Shown piece after piece: positions 30,803-37,531 of a stretch of DNA of 64,000 bases. The DNA lies in assembly GCA_020161395.1 (NCBI GenBank), contig JAIUOE010000004.1, positions 310,001 through 374,000 on the forward strand, written 5' to 3'. The position numbers and the translations under genes were made by a program. The stretch is from Bacteroidota bacterium (GTDB lineage: Bacteria; Bacteroidota; Ignavibacteria; Ignavibacteriales; Ignavibacteriaceae). The notes under the pieces are model-generated. The model was not told the DNA's origin. It saw nothing but the letters and a program-made list of their open reading frames with translations, and did not search any database. The number at the start of each line of letters is the position of its first letter. Positions within the stretch are counted from its first letter, which is position 1.

Positions 30803-32335
30803 TTAATAAAGTCCCCAGTCTCCCTGTTCGAAATACCTGTAAAGAACGGGTTCAGTCAGATTGTTTACCTTAATTTCCTCATTATCTTTCAGAGGTGACT
30901 TGCCAAATGAGACAAGGGCATCTAACACATTGTTATTTAACCAGTTTGTCGTTCGTTCATCAATTTTAATTTCAGAATATTTTAGTTTGAGCTGCTCCCC
31001 GTCAAGTGAAGCGGAGCCAATAATAAATCCCCACTCCCCCATCGTTGGAACATGATTTCTCATTCGAAGCGAACTGAAACCGGAAGCTTTAATTGTTGTA
31101 TCAATACAGGCGAAAGCCTTTGCAGCAAAATATGGACTGCATGCCTGGGTTATGAATATTCCATCTTTTGAAAGGTGTTTTTTTACAATCGAATAGAACT
31201 CTTTGGAATAGAGACGACTAATATCGGAGTTTCTTGGGTCGGGAAAATCTGCAATAATTACATCGTAAAGACTATTGCTTTCCTCCAAATAACGAAAGGC
31301 GTCTGTGTTGACAATTTTGACTTTTTTGTCGTTCAGAGAGCCTTTATTAATCTCGAGGAGTATATCGTTTTTTTGAGCGAGGTCCGTAATTGCCTTATCA
31401 ATATCCACGAGATAGATTTCCTTAACTTCAGGATATTTCAAGACTTCCCTCACGGCACATCCGTCACCACCTCCAAGTATCAGCACACGATCCTTACTCC
31501 CTGACATCTGAAGAGGAATATGTACGAGTGGTTCGTGATACAGTGACTCATCGTAAGTGCTGAATTGAACACTGTTATTTAAGTAAAGCCAGTGATATTC
31601 TTTCCATTTTGTTATAACAATTTTCTGATATTTGGTCTGCTCTTCATACACAATGTTGTCTAGGTATTTTAACTGCTCGGAAAAACGGATTATTGGATTT
31701 GAAAATATAGCACCCGAGACAATAATAAAAGTTACCGAAATAATCAGCGTACCCATGGCAACCTTTGAGTATTTAAAGTGCTCACGCAGATGCAGGTAAA
31801 GCAGTAGTGCCACAGTGAAATCAATCGCTCCAAGGATAAACGGAGTATAAGTCAGTCCGATAATTGGCAAACCAACAAAAGCGAAAAAAATGCCACCGAC
31901 CAGACTTCCATAGTAATCTTTTTCGAGTACATTCGCAATATTTACCCTGAGCTCTTCGAACTCTTCGTTCAAACGGGTAACAATTGGAATCTCAAGGCCG
32001 ATTAATAATCCGATAAAAATGGAAAGTGAATAGATTGTAATTCCCCGAAATTCAGGGAAAGCAGAGATCGAGTAGACGATAATTGCTGAAAATGAGGTCG
32101 CTATAGAGAGAGTAAATTCAATCAGGATAAATTTTTCAAGTAAATTCTGTTTTATAAATTTACTTAAACTGCTCCCAAGTCCCATGGAAAACAGCATCAA
32201 CGATACAATAAGCGTCCATTGAATGACCGAGTCTCCCAAAAAATAGGCTGCAAGAGTGGAAAGAATATACTCTGCCACAATGCCCGAAACTCCTGTGGCA
32301 AAGAGACATAATTTTAAAAGGTTGGATTTTTTCAC
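30803..32335 (-). CDS. speE: Membrane-anchored polyamine aminopropyltransferase (spermidine synthase)
   Basis: 510 residues, much longer than soluble SpeE (about 280-300). The first 215 residues hold about seven membrane helices. The rest is a spermidine synthase domain with LILGGGDGCAVREVL (286-299) for decarboxylated SAM, VDIDKAITD after it, and an active-site loop IADFPDPRN before RLYSKEFY. It would transfer an aminopropyl group to putrescine (or a related amine) at the membrane face. It lies 4 bases after the DUF350 gene in the PspA operon, and the SAM decarboxylase that makes its co-substrate is at the other end of the locus. Confidence 0.9.
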   Translation of the reverse strand: MKKSNLLKLCLFATGVSGIVAEYILSTLAAYFLGDSVIQWTLIVSLMLFSMGLGSSLSKFIKQNLLEKFILIEFTLSIATSFSAIIVYSISAFPEFRGITIYSLSIFIGLLIGLEIPIVTRLNEEFEELRVNIANVLEKDYYGSLVGGIFFAFVGLPIIGLTYTPFILGAIDFTVALLLYLHLREHFKYSKVAMGTLIISVTFIIVSGAIFSNPIIRFSEQLKYLDNIVYEEQTKYQKIVITKWKEYHWLYLNNSVQFSTYDESLYHEPLVHIPLQMSGSKDRVLILGGGDGCAVREVLKYPEVKEIYLVDIDKAITDLAQKNDILLEINKGSLNDKKVKIVNTDAFRYLEESNSLYDVIIADFPDPRNSDISRLYSKEFYSIVKKHLSKDGIFITQACSPYFAAKAFACIDTTIKASGFSSLRMRNHVPTMGEWGFIIGSASLDGEQLKLKYSEIKIDERTTNWLNNNVLDALVSFGKSPLKDNEEIKVNNLTEPVLYRYFEQGDWGLY

Positions 32336-32339
32336 TAAC

Positions 32340-33185
32340 CTATAGAGCCCAGCCTATTAGAAGAGCAGATCCTACATAAACGAAAGCCTCTATCAGTCCG
32401 GCACCCGTATTTGGCACTGCCTGTCCCTGAACCTCATAACTCAAGCGCTTGCCGGGAAGTATCACTTTATCTGTCAGGATTCTGACCAGAGGAAGTAGAA
32501 CAATTCCAATCAATAAATCGACCACGACATCAGAAATGAAATTTTCCCAGCCCGGAAAATCACCAAACATCGCTTCATTGATAATTATGGAAATGGCAAT
32601 CAGAATACCTGCGAATCCAAGCCCGACCGCCACATTGTCCTGTTCTATCTCTTTTAAATAATCGTAAGGAGTGATAAACTGATATAAAAACGAGAACAGG
32701 ATGAGAGCGAACTGACCGATTACCCAAAATGCAATTGCTGTCAGTATACTTCCTCCTTCACCTGAAACAGCACTCGAAACCACAAGACCGGTGGCGATGG
32801 ATGAGGCACCCAGTACAACCGCAGTTCCGGCATTCCTGTCAACCGTTATTTCTTTGGGAGCATCAATCTTGCGCAAAATAAACCAGTCGTTTATATATGC
32901 AGAAATATTATGCAGTATTATGGCAAGAAGCCCGTAAATGGCAATATCAATCAGATCATTGACAAGCCCTCCGGATGGACCAAAAAAGACCCCTCCTATT
33001 GAAATAATTACTCCCGCAAAATAGCTTGCGAAAACTATTGCAAATGCAAGATTATCTTTCTCGACGAGTTCATCTTTTACATTATATTTAGGATTGAACA
33101 ACCGGAATGCAAAGATACCAAGAAGCATCAGAATAACTCCGGCAGCAAAATAAACTGCAGCAGTGAGTAAATGGTCTAAAATCAT
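32340..33185 (-). CDS. DUF350 (YjfL-like) membrane protein
   Basis: About 281 residues containing two DUF350 repeats, each of about four membrane helices, with repeated Asn/Asp-Asn-x-Ala motifs (DNLAFAIVFASYF and DNVAVGLGFAGIL). Function unknown; the Escherichia coli relative YjfL is encoded beside a PspA homologue. The ATG complementary to 33183-33185 is chosen because GGGAGG sits 8-9 bases before it and it starts one base after the lipoprotein stop. A longer frame from 33239 would overlap the lipoprotein by 53 bases. Confidence 0.88.
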   Translation of the reverse strand: MILDHLLTAAVYFAAGVILMLLGIFAFRLFNPKYNVKDELVEKDNLAFAIVFASYFAGVIISIGGVFFGPSGGLVNDLIDIAIYGLLAIILHNISAYINDWFILRKIDAPKEITVDRNAGTAVVLGASSIATGLVVSSAVSGEGGSILTAIAFWVIGQFALILFSFLYQFITPYDYLKEIEQDNVAVGLGFAGILIAISIIINEAMFGDFPGWENFISDVVVDLLIGIVLLPLVRILTDKVILPGKRLSYEVQGQAVPNTGAGLIEAFVYVGSALLIGWAL

Positions 33186-33186
33186 T

Positions 33187-33921
33187 TCATTTACCTCCCG
33201 ATCCACCGCGTGATCTGACATTGGGAGTGCCTCTGCCAACCGAACGGGATACTTTGTTGTTTACTTTTTCTTTAAAGCTCTGCGAACCGCTCTTTATCTT
33301 CGAAATCTTTTCTCCGAAAGATGCGGGCTTTGTTTTGGTTGTGTAGGAACCGTAAGTTCCATATTTATAACTTCCTCCCGACATGGGACCGTAATACGGT
33401 TTTCGATTTCTGTAATTTCTGTTATAGTCATCGTATTCACCGCGGAAAACCGATCCGGATGCAAGGTTCATCATAGAACTGAGGAACATATACTGTCCAT
33501 AAAACTGCCAGAATGAACCGGAACCGCTGTTCACCCAACTCCCGTATTTTGGATTTCCCACATAATTGTTATAACCTGCGGGGGCGATAGCCTTGCTCAC
33601 CTTTCCGTCAGCACCTTTGGAGGCAACTTCCATTCCGAGATAGTTCTCATTCTCCCAGAAGACTTCCTCGCTGACTTCGATCCAGTCGGTAGTCTCATCT
33701 TTTATTTTGATTGAGTCAAACTGTTTGATAATCTGATATTTATGTTTGTAGTCCTTAAAAAATGTGCCGTCAACATCCATATCGCTCAGGATGATCGAAT
33801 ACATAGGAACTTTTTCATTGTTAAGCTTTGTAATCAGATCATCGACTGGTGGCTTTTTGTACTCTTTACCACAACCCGCGAGAAACAGGAGGAAAAGAGT
33901 TGCAAGAAATATCTTCTTCAT
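33187..33921 (-). CDS. Lipoprotein of the PspA locus, unknown function
   Basis: 244 residues. A classical lipoprotein signal is seen (MKKIFLATLFLLFLAGC), so the mature protein begins at Cys17 and is membrane-attached in the envelope. The middle is rich in aromatic residues. The C-terminal third is a low-complexity Gly/Tyr/Ser/Lys stretch ending in an Arg/Gly/Ser tail. I recognise no domain. Its place next to DUF350 recalls YjfM (DUF1190) of the E. coli yjf cluster, which also has a Gly-rich C-terminus, but homology is not shown. It starts 1 base from the DUF4178 gene stop. Confidence 0.8.
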   Translation of the reverse strand: MKKIFLATLFLLFLAGCGKEYKKPPVDDLITKLNNEKVPMYSIILSDMDVDGTFFKDYKHKYQIIKQFDSIKIKDETTDWIEVSEEVFWENENYLGMEVASKGADGKVSKAIAPAGYNNYVGNPKYGSWVNSGSGSFWQFYGQYMFLSSMMNLASGSVFRGEYDDYNRNYRNRKPYYGPMSGGSYKYGTYGSYTTKTKPASFGEKISKIKSGSQSFKEKVNNKVSRSVGRGTPNVRSRGGSGGK

Positions 33922-34473
33922 TTAAATCTTTCCGGGGAAAATGTTGCTGATCTCATAATCTTGTACCACCCTGCCGATACTTGCTTCAAAATCTTCTTCA
34001 CCCCATTGTTCAATCGACAGAATATACTTTCCGGTTTCATCCCGGTAATCCCAACTGATAAAGGGTTCCCATGCGTTCCCCGAAATATCCCTGAAATTTC
34101 CCGCTGCTTCAGCTTTTCTGAAAAAAGTTCTGCCGCTGAATTCAATTACCCGTCTTGGTTTTTCCTGTTCGATAATCTCTTCAATCAGATTTTTGTCAAT
34201 ATTATTAATATCCACTTCCTTCATCACGGTAATTTCGATTTCATCGTCTTCTTCGACATGTAAATATGCAGTGGCATCAGAGGATTTTATTTGGAACTCA
34301 AGAGTAAAAAAATCGTCACCCCAGTCATATTCAAACTCCTTTGTCACTTCCCAGCTTGCACCCTCAACATCAAGGATAAATCCTTTTCTAAGGTCTGTGA
34401 CTTTAAGGTTAGTCGGATCGTACGACGGCTGTTCTTCTTCTTTTTTCTTCTTTTTAAACCAGTTAAAGACCAT
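33922..34473 (-). CDS. DUF4178 domain protein
   Basis: 183 residues, predicted soluble, no signal peptide. A basic N-terminus (NWFKKKKKEEE) precedes a beta-rich domain that resembles DUF4178 (LKVTDLRKGFILDVEGASWEV, YDWGDDFFTLEFQ). DUF4178 proteins recur next to PspA and DUF350 genes; the matching position in the E. coli yjf cluster is held by YjfK (DUF2491). Biochemical role unknown; the basic N-terminus could contact membrane lipid. The gene follows a terminator hairpin after pspA, so it is probably made at a lower level than PspA. Confidence 0.75.
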   Translation of the reverse strand: MVFNWFKKKKKEEEQPSYDPTNLKVTDLRKGFILDVEGASWEVTKEFEYDWGDDFFTLEFQIKSSDATAYLHVEEDDEIEITVMKEVDINNIDKNLIEEIIEQEKPRRVIEFSGRTFFRKAEAAGNFRDISGNAWEPFISWDYRDETGKYILSIEQWGEEDFEASIGRVVQDYEISNIFPGKI

Positions 34474-34490
34474 GTTATCATCCCGTTATG

Positions 34491-34523
34491 AAAAAAAACA
34501 AGGGCACCCTGAGAAGGATGCCC
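34491..34523 (-). terminator. Terminator/attenuator inside the PspA operon
   Basis: Arms at 34502-34509 and 34516-34523 pair over 8 bp (one G-U) around a 6-base loop and, on the minus strand, are followed by TTG and eight T residues. It lies between the pspA stop (34535) and the DUF4178 start (34473). Confidence 0.8.
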
Positions 34524-34534
34524 AAAATGAGTGA

Positions 34535-35239
34535 TTAAGGTTTTTTCAACTTACTCTTCAAATCTTCAAGCAGAAGATCACCCTGCAGGTCAGTCTCTGA
34601 AAGAGCTTTGTCAATTTTTGTATTGAGCCCCTCGTTAAGACCTTCCATTTCAGCATATGCCTGAGCAAGAGTTTCGTCTGCTTCCACTTTTTGTTTCATT
34701 CTCTCAAGCATTGCGATAGTGCTGTCTGCATCAATTCCTGAGAGTTGTTTATTAACCTTCTTCATTGATTCAGCAGTTTTGGCTCTTGCTTTAAGGGTAA
34801 TCAGATCATTTTCCTGCTGTTGGATGGTCCTTCTCAATTTTTCAATCTGCATCTGGAGTTTTCCAATCATTTCATTCTGTTTTTCCAGATTGATTGAAGA
34901 TTCAGAGGCTTTTTTAACACTGTCTTCTTTTTGGATCAATGCTTCTTTTGCAAGCCTTTCAGCTTCTTCCGGAGCCATCTGACCCGACTCTGCACGCTGG
35001 AGAAGCAGTACTGCTTTTCTTTCCCACTCAATTGATCTTTCATTGTAGAGATTTTTGTCTCTCTCCATTTTAATCGCCTGAGCTTTTACTTCAGCAAATG
35101 CCTGCATCGCTTGTGATAAATTGTTTTTAAGATCCCTGATTGCCTGCTCCGACATCTTGATTGGATCCTCGAGTTTGTCGATCACTGTATGGGCTTCTGC
35201 TTGACCGATTTTAAACAGCCTTTTGAAAATACTCATCAT
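34535..35239 (-). CDS. pspA: PspA/IM30 family membrane-stress protein
   Basis: About 234 residues, almost wholly coiled coil, as in PspA/Vipp1, which form ESCRT-III-like rings on damaged inner membrane. The N-terminal amphipathic helix MSIFKRLFKIGQAEAHTVIDKLEDP is the membrane-binding segment and is followed by the conserved KMSEQAIRDLKNNLSQAMQAFAEVKAQ. I start at the first of two adjacent ATGs (35237-35239) because GAGGAG lies just before it; a longer frame to 35257 would overlap the upstream gene. The E. coli homologue closest by context is YjfJ rather than PspA itself. Confidence 0.93.
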   Translation of the reverse strand: MMSIFKRLFKIGQAEAHTVIDKLEDPIKMSEQAIRDLKNNLSQAMQAFAEVKAQAIKMERDKNLYNERSIEWERKAVLLLQRAESGQMAPEEAERLAKEALIQKEDSVKKASESSINLEKQNEMIGKLQMQIEKLRRTIQQQENDLITLKARAKTAESMKKVNKQLSGIDADSTIAMLERMKQKVEADETLAQAYAEMEGLNEGLNTKIDKALSETDLQGDLLLEDLKSKLKKP

Positions 35240-35247
35240 GTTCTCCT

Positions 35248-35640
35248 CTATTTGCAAATTTCAATAAGAAAATCAGTATGCTCTGCCATAGCGAAATGTA
35301 TGGCTGACATGGTGCCTTCGACCTCGTTTTCATCAAGATTCTCCAATTGGAGGGTATCTCTAAAAAGAAGTGTGTTATTATCCTCTTCGAGGACAAATGC
35401 CCCGTGAACGAGTTTTCTGTTTACCTGCAGGAGCTTTTTGTAAACATCTTTCTCATCTTTTTTGAGTTTTCCAATGTACTGTTCAAAGATCAAAAGAGGG
35501 TTTTCGCAATCTATTATAAGATTCGAAATGCCCTTGTCTGTATCATCAACAATCACTATTTCCTCTTCCGGTATTTCCCTTGAGATATGATATCCCAGAT
35601 TAATTAAATAATTTTTTACCAATTCATATTTTGAAGACAT
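35248..35640 (-). CDS. YbjN/DUF2170-like small protein, first gene of the PspA operon
   Basis: 130 residues, acidic, no signal peptide. The alpha/beta pattern (VKNYLINLGYHI, VDDTDKGISNLIIDCENPLLIFEQYIGKL, KLLQVNRKLVHGAFVLEEDNNTLLFRDTLQLENLD) resembles YbjN/type III chaperone-like proteins. In the E. coli yjf cluster this place is taken by YjfI (DUF2170). A chaperone or binding partner for PspA is a reasonable guess from position only. It stops 8 bases before the pspA start. Confidence 0.75.
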   Translation of the reverse strand: MSSKYELVKNYLINLGYHISREIPEEEIVIVDDTDKGISNLIIDCENPLLIFEQYIGKLKKDEKDVYKKLLQVNRKLVHGAFVLEEDNNTLLFRDTLQLENLDENEVEGTMSAIHFAMAEHTDFLIEICK

Positions 35641-35751
35641 ATTTTTTCCTCGAATGATTTAATTTTGTTCGAAATATAATTAAAAATCTGCTAAATTATA
35701 CTCTGTTTTTGATTAAATTTTATAATCGCTGACAAGCGGCGAATTTTTGCC

Positions 35752-36105
35752 ATGATGAACAAATACACCCTGATTTTTGAACTTTGTAATTGTAAAGGTC
35801 ACGATCTTTACGATAATGAGAAAATCAGCTCTGTTTTCAACTCGCTTCTCAAGAGATCCGGATTTTCAATAGTATCCTCGATGAAGCACGAGTTCACTCC
35901 ACAGGGTCTGACTTTCGTTTCCATTCTTAGTGAATCTCATGCATTGGTACATACATTTCCTGAGGAATCCAGACTTTCCATCGATTTATACACCTGTTCG
36001 GAACCCGATAAACTGGAAATATTTATTGAGGAAGCACTTCAGGAATTTGAACCGGGTAAATACTTCTTCAAAGTTGTCGACAGGAATAAAATAGTTGAAG
36101 TGTAA
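35752..36105 (+). CDS. speD: S-adenosylmethionine decarboxylase proenzyme
   Basis: 117 residues, the small prokaryotic (class 1B) form. The self-cleavage site is in LSESHALVHTFPE: Ser62 after Glu61 would become the pyruvoyl group. The proton-donor Cys82 is in DLYTCSE. It makes decarboxylated SAM, the aminopropyl donor for the spermidine synthase encoded at the far end of the divergent operon. The 111-base AT-rich gap to the YbjN-like gene must hold both promoters. It ends exactly where the convergent fructosamine-kinase gene ends. Two ATGs in a row (35752, 35755) are possible starts. Confidence 0.92.
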   Translation: MMNKYTLIFELCNCKGHDLYDNEKISSVFNSLLKRSGFSIVSSMKHEFTPQGLTFVSILSESHALVHTFPEESRLSIDLYTCSEPDKLEIFIEEALQEFEPGKYFFKVVDRNKIVEV

Positions 36106-36954
36106 CTAAGCATATTTTTGAATTATGCTCTTCACTTGCTCCAGATAACCTGACCCAAAAAGATTTAAATGATTCATGAGATGGTAAAGCTGGTAGACAT
36201 CTCTTCTCTTTTTGTATTGGTTATACCAACTGTAACTTTCGAAATACGCCCCGTAAAAGTCGCCGTCGAATCCGCCAAACAGCTCTGTCATTGCAATATC
36301 TGTTTCCCGGTCACCATAATAAACTGCCGGATCGATGATTACAGCCTCGCCTTTCTCGTCAGTCAATACATTTCCGTACCATAAATCACCATGCAGCAAT
36401 GATGGTTTAACCGATTTGTCATCGATCAATTCAGGTAATCTTTTTAACAGAGCATCAAATTTCAAAGCAAGCGATTTATCGGTGTAACCGTTTTGGCTCA
36501 TCATTCGAAATTGAGGTACAAGCCTTTTTTCCCTGTAGAAATCGATCCAAGACGCCATGAATGGAGTATTTTGCTGCAATGTGTCCCCGATAAAATTGTT
36601 TTCATGGAAACCGAAACCCGAGTCAGACACTATTTCGTGAAAAATAAAGAGATCTCTGCCGAAATTTTCCGAAAAATTATATCGTTCACGCCCTTCTTTT
36701 ATCATTTCCATTACAAGAGTATTCCCCGAGCAGGTAAAGACTTTTGGAACACGAATCAACTTCTGTTTTGCAAGTTCATTCAGCCCTTTTTCTTCCGCTC
36801 CCGCCTTCAGATTGCCACCTGCACCCCTGTAGGTTTTTACAAAATAATAAGTACCGCTTGCTCCTGAGAAGATAGCAGAATCAGCTATGCAACCACCTCC
36901 GGCCCTCCTCACAAAACTGACATTCTCGCCAATTAACTCTGATAAATTAATCAT
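36106..36954 (-). CDS. Fructosamine/ribulosamine 3-kinase family protein
   Basis: 282 residues of the fructosamine-kinase/APH kinase fold. Catalytic loop LLHGDLWYGNVL and metal-binding AVIIDPAVYYGDRETDIAM are intact. Such kinases phosphorylate sugar adducts on protein lysines so that they fall off. It overlaps the upstream phosphatase gene by 4 bases (ATGA), so both are made together. That pairing is known for bacterial relatives and fits a deglycation role. Confidence 0.9.
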   Translation of the reverse strand: MINLSELIGENVSFVRRAGGGCIADSAIFSGASGTYYFVKTYRGAGGNLKAGAEEKGLNELAKQKLIRVPKVFTCSGNTLVMEMIKEGRERYNFSENFGRDLFIFHEIVSDSGFGFHENNFIGDTLQQNTPFMASWIDFYREKRLVPQFRMMSQNGYTDKSLALKFDALLKRLPELIDDKSVKPSLLHGDLWYGNVLTDEKGEAVIIDPAVYYGDRETDIAMTELFGGFDGDFYGAYFESYSWYNQYKKRRDVYQLYHLMNHLNLFGSGYLEQVKSIIQKYA

Positions 36955-37430
36955 TTGGAATTGTAATGATTTAGAAGGTAATTCAATAAATTGTCACATC
37001 CATCTTCGAGGAGGTCGATTACATGGTGGAATGCCTCAGGTCCGTCATAATACGGATCCGGCACTTCAGTCACATTCCACTGAGTAACAAAATCGGTCAT
37101 CATTCTGATTTTTTCGCGATATTTCCCCTCCGGATCCAGGGATGTAATGTTATAATAATTCGACCGGTCCATCGCCAGAATGATGTCATATTCTCCCAGA
37201 TCAGTTGCAGACAGTTTTCTAGCCCTGTGAGGTGATATATCATAACCTCTTTCTTTACAATGTGTTATCATTCTTCTGTCAGCCGATTCACCAATATGGT
37301 AACCTGCAGTCCCTGCTGAATCTATCTCAAAATTACTTTCCAGCCCGGCTATTTTAACTTTCTCACGAAACACTCCCTCTGCAGCAGGTGAACGGCAGAT
37401 ATTCCCGAGACAAACAAACAGTACTTTCAC
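36951..37430 (-). CDS. Low-molecular-weight protein-tyrosine-phosphatase family protein
   Basis: About 159 residues from a GTG start complementary to 37428-37430 (VKVLFVCLGNICRSP), preceded by GGAAAA. The phosphate loop C7-x5-R13-S and the general-acid segment VPDPYYDG are present. The longer frame to 37523 adds 31 residues with no family match before the usual N-terminus. With the kinase translated from its stop codon, it probably removes phosphate from ribulosamine-5-phosphate-type adducts before the kinase acts, though tyrosine phosphatase activity is equally possible from sequence. Confidence 0.9.
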   Translation of the reverse strand: MKVLFVCLGNICRSPAAEGVFREKVKIAGLESNFEIDSAGTAGYHIGESADRRMITHCKERGYDISPHRARKLSATDLGEYDIILAMDRSNYYNITSLDPEGKYREKIRMMTDFVTQWNVTEVPDPYYDGPEAFHHVIDLLEDGCDNLLNYLLNHYNSK

Positions 37431-37531
37431 ATTTTTTCCATTTTTTATGAATTCTTTAATACAAACATAGTTTAGACAGCCCGATTTTAAAAGAACATTT
37501 GTGAGTAGAGCCCTGACAAACAAATTTTCAC

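What the first reader, a model, noticed from the sequence alone, without database searches (positions are those of the whole stretch)
30803..36105. A PspA membrane-stress locus fused to spermidine synthesis
Seen: six minus-strand genes in the order YbjN-like, PspA, DUF4178, lipoprotein, DUF350, membrane-anchored spermidine synthase, with SAM decarboxylase divergent at the head. Established: in E. coli the yjfIJKLMC cluster sets DUF2170, a PspA homologue, DUF2491, DUF350, DUF1190 and a glutathionylspermidine-synthase-like ATP-grasp protein side by side, and comparative studies link PspA, DUF350 and polyamine enzymes. Inference: here the ATP-grasp enzyme is replaced by both dedicated steps of spermidine synthesis, with the synthase carrying its own seven-helix membrane domain. 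The system could make or deliver polyamine at the membrane surface where PspA coats acidic lipid. The biochemistry is, as far as I know, untested.
Basis: partly seen in the sequence, partly recalled or inferred. Interest (0 to 1): 0.78.

Follow-up and report, generated by a model that had tools for sequence, protein, structure and literature searches.

The report
Membrane enzyme tagging lipoprotein tails
This published but unexplained bacterial membrane-stress gene cluster encodes a membrane-bound relative of spermidine synthase whose active part probably faces outward, and a partner protein that almost always ends in lysine, which suggests that the enzyme tags that protein's tail rather than making free spermidine.

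Summary
In detail: CesT/YbjN-like, PspA, DUF4178, lipoprotein, DUF350 and membrane SpeE (mSpeE) on the minus strand, SpeD divergent. This operon type is in print (Ravi 2024) without a settled mechanism.

New here: (1) The SpeE domain probably lies outside the inner membrane: residues 1-188 model as a six-helix MFS half, one more helix follows, and K/R counts agree in 81 of 81 and 26 of 26 sequences. (2) The lipoprotein ends in Gly-Lys in 66 of 66; 11 of 11 genomes whose mSpeE lacks it nearby hold it. In a second subfamily a different protein, mostly tiny, ends in Lys in 15 of 17 loci; the other two carry an ATP-grasp ligase and a Gly-Gly tail. Ligase-linked tails end -GG in 9 of 10.

Best reading: aminopropylation of a membrane protein's C-terminal lysine outside the cytoplasm. 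No biochemistry supports it yet. Spermidine synthesis is not excluded: this genome seems able to make putrescine and shows one SpeE and one SpeD. PspA is an exchangeable module.

The parts
30803..32335 (-). membrane aminopropyltransferase (mSpeE), 510 aa: MFS half + seventh helix + SpeE domain
   Evidence: NF002956 552.5 bits over cut-off; PF01564; AlphaFold pLDDT 90.9
31772..32335 (-). residues 1-188 of mSpeE: six-helix major-facilitator half
   Evidence: membrane-part model pLDDT 93.8; VIA Z 16.8-18.9 to MFS halves; no Foldseek match at E <= 0.001
31673..31765 (-). residues 191-221: seventh helix, puts the catalytic domain outside
   Evidence: helix in model; hydropathy and K/R pattern
30806..31672 (-). 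residues 222-510: aminopropyltransferase domain, catalytic residues kept
   Evidence: VIA Z 34.2 to T. thermophilus SpeE 3anx; residues kept in nearly all relatives
32340..33182 (-). DUF350 membrane protein (two DUF350 stretches)
   Evidence: PF03994 177.3 bits
33187..33921 (-). lipoprotein, proposed acceptor
   Evidence: lipoprotein-attachment match; family in 65 of 80 loci
33190..33324 (-). basic tail of the lipoprotein ending in Gly-Lys (Lys codon 33190-33192)
   Evidence: 66 of 66 family members, this one included, end in GK
33922..34473 (-). DUF4178 protein
   Evidence: PF13785 72.9 bits
34502..34523 (-). terminator-like hairpin between pspA and DUF4178
   Evidence: 9-pair stem + T run; -17.1 kcal/mol, z -2.8 for the 60-base stretch
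34535..35239 (-). PspA/IM30 family protein
   Evidence: PF04012 143.1 bits
35248..35640 (-). CesT/Tir-like (YbjN-related) protein
   Evidence: PF22550 155 bits, PF10722 31 bits
35641..35751 (.). intergenic region between the CesT-like gene and speD
35752..36105 (+). S-adenosylmethionine decarboxylase SpeD
   Evidence: PF02675 85.9 bits; processing Ser and catalytic His/Cys kept

Best explanation
The locus encodes an envelope system that puts aminopropyl groups on a membrane-tethered protein tail. SpeD in the cytoplasm makes decarboxylated S-adenosylmethionine (family knowledge; active-site residues present). The half-transporter of mSpeE, with DUF350, brings this cation to the outer face of the inner membrane (inferred). 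There the SpeE domain transfers the aminopropyl group to the side-chain amine of the lipoprotein's C-terminal lysine (inferred), perhaps repeatedly, giving a strongly cationic tail that could bind acidic lipid or other envelope polyanions. PspA with its CesT-like partner, or an AAA+ ATPase in other genomes, is an exchangeable module on the inner side (inferred). It would be the amine-acceptor counterpart of the YjfC/YgiC systems, where an ATP-grasp ligase would join spermidine to a Gly-Gly tail.
For: Lipoprotein ends in Gly-Lys in 66 of 66; Lys ends 13.6% of 971 other predicted frames; of the seven families with 40 or more members it alone has a fixed end. Lipoprotein and mSpeE go together: 7 of 395 phylum genomes have the lipoprotein, all among the 8 with an mSpeE above 700 bits; in the eighth the DUF4178 protein ends RGFGK. 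The 11 genomes whose mSpeE has no lipoprotein nearby hold one elsewhere; with two more genomes searched, 15 copies, all ending in Lys, 14 in Gly-Lys. Second subfamily: Lys end in 15 of 17 loci; the two exceptions have an ATP-grasp ligase and a Gly-Gly tail. Ligase systems: -GG in 9 of 10 tails, -CG in one, Lys in none. Topology: residues 1-188 align with MFS halves, K/R pattern 81 of 81 and 26 of 26. Catalytic residues kept in SpeE and SpeD. Amine-oxidase-like neighbours start with a twin-arginine motif in 13 of 14 and 9 of 11 by a loose pattern.
Against: No biochemistry. The genome has a pyruvoyl arginine decarboxylase, AguA-like and AguB-like genes, one SpeE and one SpeD match, and no carboxyspermidine decarboxylase over cut-off, so spermidine synthesis by this enzyme remains possible. 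How decarboxylated AdoMet would leave the cytoplasm is not shown. AlphaFold draws helix 133-182 as continuous (129-182), so seven crossings rest on the MFS alignment and charges; Foldseek gave no match at E <= 0.001 for the membrane part. 26 of 66 lipoproteins lack a strict lipobox. The orientation of the tiny partner proteins was not tested. In the plasmid loci I looked for Lys-ending frames, which biases that count. A fixed C-terminal Lys could be a recognition signal and not the acceptor.
Confidence: 0.55

Rival explanations
1. mSpeE is this genome's spermidine (or similar polyamine) synthase, anchored in the membrane; the C-terminal Lys of the lipoprotein serves another purpose.
For: One SpeE and one SpeD match in the genome; arginine-agmatine-putrescine genes present; no carboxyspermidine decarboxylase over cut-off; aminopropyltransferase catalytic residues kept.
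Against: Predicted outside location; 4 of 8 genomes with this subfamily hold a second SpeE-family match; close pairing with a Lys-ending protein. Ravi 2024 cites Li 2019 for aminopropylation of other substrates (passage); Li 2019 was not held, and I recall it reporting that an MFS-SpeE fusion did not complement a speE mutant.
Confidence: 0.2
2. mSpeE aminopropylates a lipid or other small envelope amine; the Lys-ending protein binds or senses the product.
For: Membrane embedding, MFS-like half; closest fold is the Thermus triamine/agmatine enzyme.
Against: Does not explain why the last residue is Lys in different partner families or Gly-Gly beside ligases.
Confidence: 0.15
3. Polyamine sensing or supply at the inner face with PspA (first reader; Ravi 2024 in part).
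For: Recurring PspA-polyamine gene linkage.
Against: PspA not in the stretch held in 37 of 80 loci, terminator-like break, topology.
Confidence: 0.1

Closest known systems
CesT/Tir-PspA + DUF4178 + lipoprotein + DUF350 + 7TM-SpeE operon, Ravi et al. 2024 (PMC11237479; outline, section 19 in full, passages of sections 20 and 30)
   Same: Same gene set; the window is a member of it
   Different: The parts I read propose PspA-linked polyamine monitoring or aminopropylation of unnamed substrates; they do not mention an outside catalytic domain or a fixed C-terminal Lys, and section 19 does not list SpeD for this group. Supplements were not read.
E. coli yjfIJKLMC and ygiBC (YjfC/YgiC annotated peptide--spermidine ligases; Pederick 2023, title seen in reference lists only)
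   Same: A membrane or lipoprotein partner with a basic Ser/Gly/Arg tail; the yjf cluster also has CesT-like, PspA and DUF350 genes
   Different: ATP-grasp ligase in place of SpeE/SpeD; DUF1190 tail ending Gly-Gly instead of Gly-Lys
Fused MFS/spermidine synthase family (NF037959) and Li et al. 2019 (not held, recalled)
   Same: Membrane part followed by a SpeE-like domain (58.7 bits over a 40-bit cut-off)
   Different: Window scores far higher with NF002956 (552.5 bits)
Hypusine and silaffin lysine modifications (recalled)
   Same: Polyamine-derived group carried on a protein lysine
   Different: Different enzymes, position and compartment; no relation tested

Membership tests
Ravi 2024 CesT/Tir-PspA-SpeE operon | CesT/Tir-like gene next to PspA | tested here: met
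   PF22550 and PF04012
Ravi 2024 CesT/Tir-PspA-SpeE operon | 7TM domain fused to SpeE domain | tested here: met
Ravi 2024 CesT/Tir-PspA-SpeE operon | DUF350 (8TM) and DUF4178 genes | tested here: met
   two DUF350 stretches, helix count not tested
Ravi 2024 CesT/Tir-PspA-SpeE operon | Ctha_1186-domain lipoprotein | not tested
   The domain model is in supplementary material, not available here; position and lipobox fit
Polyamine aminopropyltransferase (NF002956) | score over curated cut-off | tested here: met
   552.5 against 472 bits
Cytoplasmic spermidine synthase | catalytic residues | tested here: met
Cytoplasmic spermidine synthase | catalytic domain in the cytoplasm | tested here: inconclusive
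   predicted outside by charges and MFS alignment; no experiment
Cytoplasmic spermidine synthase | makes spermidine from putrescine | not testable with these tools
   needs an assay
Major facilitator superfamily (N-terminal part) | six-helix half fold | tested here: met
   VIA Z 16.8-18.9 over residues 1-188; Foldseek E-values all above 0.001
E. coli YjfC/YgiC peptide-spermidine ligase system | ATP-grasp ligase (PF03738) in the cluster | tested here: not met
   no such match among the ten proteins scanned at the locus
E. coli YjfC/YgiC peptide-spermidine ligase system | DUF1190 protein with Gly-Gly end | tested here: not met
   no DUF1190 match; tail ends Gly-Lys
S-adenosylmethionine decarboxylase class 1b | processing Ser, catalytic His and Cys | tested here: met
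   Ser and His 73 of 73, Cys 69 of 73 in the alignment, window has all three; roles of these residues recalled
Protein lysine aminopropyltransferase (proposed) | aminopropyl group on the C-terminal Lys | not testable with these tools
   needs mass spectrometry

The most novel reading that the evidence does not exclude
A previously unrecognised post-translational modification: aminopropyl transfer outside the inner membrane onto the C-terminal lysine of a membrane-tethered protein, possibly extended to an oligo-propylamine chain or oxidised by the neighbouring exported amine-oxidase-like enzyme to make cross-links, within a wider code in which the last residue of the tail (Lys or Gly) matches the chemistry of the linked enzyme (aminopropyltransferase or ATP-grasp ligase).
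Probability: 0.5. Interest if true: 0.92.

Novelty: new variant of a known kind. Interest (0 to 1): 0.8.

Why it matters
It would give a function to a large family annotated as polyamine aminopropyltransferase (539 relatives confirmed in one capped scan), suggest what AdoMet decarboxylase does where spermidine is not made (Li 2019, recalled), and add a hypusine-like protein modification on the outer face of the bacterial inner membrane. It turns a vague link between PspA and polyamines into a direct test: weigh the end of one protein.

Tried and rejected
Putrescine absence as an argument: PF02784 gave only LysA and a LysA/FslC-like gene, which first looked like no putrescine route, but PvlArgDC and AguA/AguB-like genes are present, so I dropped that argument.

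Reading the continuous helix 133-182 as a single crossing (which would put SpeE inside): rejected because residues 1-188 align with whole six-helix MFS halves and because the stretches on both of its sides carry K/R. The call gives ranges, not coordinates, so this stays an inference.

Controls and weak spots: two families of nine sequences also have an invariant last residue; among the seven families of 40 or more only the lipoprotein does (SpeE: Tyr in 77 of 94). Burkholderia loci first seemed to lack a partner; a Ser/Gly tail ending SHK was found about 3 kb away on the other strand, a weaker case. The divergent Azospirillum and Leptolyngbya ligase loci gave no recognisable tail protein. Rhodovulum L183 matched a third of the query and was left out. 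Row P_L176 was misframed and dropped. Plasmid hits H8 and H10 and genomes G280, G338 and G393 (genera already represented) were not fetched. At most six candidates per genome were scored and three, so misses are possible. In the hairpin scan several hits at short gaps run into the next gene.

Literature: ten searches of open PMC papers, judged by listing; those aimed at this idea were 98, 110 and 116 (110 listed 20 of 28). I saw no paper on aminopropylation of a C-terminal lysine. Longer lists were cut (10: 30 of 35; 11: 30 of 390; 51: 25 of 34; 62: 15 of 79). Two key papers are not held. Passages of PMC10407285, PMC11107197 and PMC8503589 gave nothing on membrane SpeE.
Full report
1. The observation. 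The six minus-strand genes and the divergent SpeD are present at the stated places and match their families. In the 80 loci kept of 539 relatives of the membrane SpeE (mSpeE, a capped list of the closest) the same set recurs: DUF350 66, lipoprotein 65, DUF4178 63, SpeD 54, PspA 43, CesT-like 40. By their titles most of these loci are Bacteroidota; a Sulfidibacter, a Vicinamibacterales and a Caldithrix are among them. A full-length mSpeE is in 3 of 149 genomes sampled from the window's class, its own included, so the system is patchy.

2. What is already known. Ravi et al. 2024 (PMC11237479; outline, section 19 in full, passages) describe this six-to-seven-gene operon, including the 7TM-SpeE fusion, DUF350, DUF4178 and a new lipoprotein, and discuss polyamine monitoring or aminopropylation of other substrates. 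Li et al. 2019, which that paper cites for other substrates, is not held; from recall it reports that MFS-SpeE fusions do not replace spermidine synthase and are linked to DUF350.

3. Where the enzyme domain lies. An AlphaFold model from an alignment of 54 sequences has mean pLDDT 90.9. Its C-terminal domain matches solved aminopropyltransferases, best the Thermus triamine/agmatine enzyme (Z 34.2, rmsd 2.2, 280 residues). A model of the membrane part alone (pLDDT 93.8) aligns over residues 1-188 with halves of major-facilitator transporters (Z 16.8-18.9), among them choline carriers and an entry titled as a spermine-bound structure; Foldseek itself gave no E-value at or below 0.001. Such halves have six helices and begin and end in the cytoplasm (recalled). 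A seventh hydrophobic helix (191-221) follows, so the catalytic domain would be outside. Charges agree: mean K/R per loop is 3.6, 2.9 and 4.1 on one side and 0.04, 0.01 and 0.01 on the other in 81 sequences, and 2.2, 3.3, 3.7 against 0.4, 0.5, 1.0 in 26 divergent ones; every sequence in both sets has more on the inside. The catalytic residues are kept in nearly all, as are those of SpeD.

4. The lysine end. All 66 members of the lipoprotein family (65 loci and the window) end in Gly-Lys after an Arg/Ser/Gly-rich tail. Lys is last in 13.6% of 971 other predicted frames. Of seven families with 40 or more members only this one has a fixed end; two families of nine sequences also do. Of the 15 loci without the lipoprotein, three begin at a contig end inside the cassette, one has such a tail on its DUF4178 protein, and in 11 no other cassette gene is in the stretch held (in one of these, L050, only about 430 bases precede mSpeE). 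I searched 13 genomes, these 11 and two that already had it: 13 of 13 hold the lipoprotein, and all 15 copies end in Lys, 14 of them in Gly-Lys. In a phylum sample the lipoprotein occurs in 7 of 395 genomes, all among the 8 with an mSpeE above 700 bits; in the eighth the DUF4178 protein ends RGFGK.

5. A second subfamily. Twenty genomes of that sample hold a divergent mSpeE (456-580 bits) and no lipoprotein match. I fetched 17. The usual cassette there is SpeD, a 410-490-residue protein with CxxC motifs (a DUF4178 match in the one scanned), a tiny protein with one hydrophobic segment, a mini DUF350 (about 72 residues), mSpeE and an amine-oxidase-like protein. Same-strand frames of 40 or more residues in the 2.6 kb before mSpeE were listed: the tiny protein ends in His-Lys in 12 loci, a 76- or 78-residue protein ends in Gly-Lys in 2 others, and in one more the CxxC protein itself ends in His-Lys. 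The remaining two have a gene of the glutathionylspermidine-synthase ATP-grasp family (PF03738, 273.5 bits in the one scanned; the other is about 76% identical) and a protein with one N-terminal hydrophobic segment whose tail ends in Gly-Gly. In ten mSpeE loci on large plasmid records of Alpha-, Beta- and Gammaproteobacteria and Gemmatimonadota (10 of the 12 hits that cover most of the query) a Lys-ending protein with a hydrophobic segment is present in all ten, but there I searched for frames ending in Lys, and the two Burkholderia cases lie about 3 kb away.

6. The ligase counterpart. RefSeq names E. coli YjfC and YgiC peptide--spermidine ligases; Pederick 2023 bears that title (seen in reference lists; paper not held). 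I examined 12 ligase loci: two in E. coli K-12, eight of 164 plasmid records with a match, and the two above. A similar tail was found in 10: Gly-Gly end in 9, Cys-Gly in one, Lys in none; the two most divergent plasmid ligases showed no such protein. A carboxyl end beside an amide ligase and an amine-bearing end beside an aminopropyltransferase is what one expects if the tail end is the substrate. This is an inference from pattern; no modification has been seen.

7. Role of PspA. PspA and the DUF3686-type ATPase (one member scanned) are nearly exclusive (43 and 14 loci, both in 1). In the window a strong terminator-like hairpin separates pspA from DUF4178 (34502-34523), and by my simple scan 19 of 40 such junctions have one, against 0 of 41, 1 of 61, 7 of 63, 7 of 59 and 1 of 41 at the other junctions (several of the 19 run into the next gene). 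The tight unit is DUF4178-lipoprotein-DUF350-mSpeE, usually with SpeD; PspA-CesT is a separable partner. A K+ channel family (29 loci) or another ion channel family (16 loci) also recurs.

8. Against this reading. The window's genome has one SpeE and one SpeD match, a PvlArgDC over cut-off, AguA- and AguB-like genes side by side (below the NCBIfam cut-offs) and no carboxyspermidine decarboxylase over cut-off. Spermidine synthesis by mSpeE is thus possible here. How decarboxylated AdoMet would reach the outside is unknown; invariant acidic residues in or near the membrane helices (E73, E115, D140) would suit a cation path, which is speculation. The orientation of the tiny Lys-ending proteins was not tested.

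9. Verdict. A real, conserved and already described operon, for which the evidence here proposes an outside-facing aminopropyltransferase acting on the lysine end of a membrane-tethered protein. Confidence 0.55 for that acceptor; the outside location is the firmer part.

Noticed in passing
L099:11589-13097, L159:9466-11097 and relatives: An amine-oxidase-like flavoprotein family with a twin-arginine start, often followed by a lipobox-like Cys, is in 14 of 80 loci and a similar one in 11 of 20 later loci; it may act on the proposed aminopropyl-lysine.
   Followed up: partly
L082:1832-6694 and 13 other loci: A 1600-residue protein (DUF3686 and AAA matches in the one scanned), often with a second family (11 loci, no Pfam match), mostly stands where CesT-PspA stands elsewhere.
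   Followed up: partly
L086:10960-11985: A K+ channel family with TrkA_N domain is near mSpeE/SpeD in 29 of 80 loci; a different ion channel family in 16.
   Followed up: no
L077, L083, L084, L088, L097, L099, L109: Some flavobacterial loci carry two mSpeE genes facing each other with the amine-oxidase-like gene between them; only one of the two stands in a lipoprotein cassette.
   Followed up: no
window 36106-37523: A fructosamine-kinase-family gene next to a low-molecular-weight phosphotyrosine phosphatase gene; neither was found in the 80 relatives' loci, so not part of the system.
   Followed up: no
L110:6836-8125, L193:1360-3192: DUF4178 and the lipoprotein family match one and the same frame, which ends in the same basic tail and Lys, although DUF4178 is predicted intracellular by Ravi 2024.
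   Followed up: no
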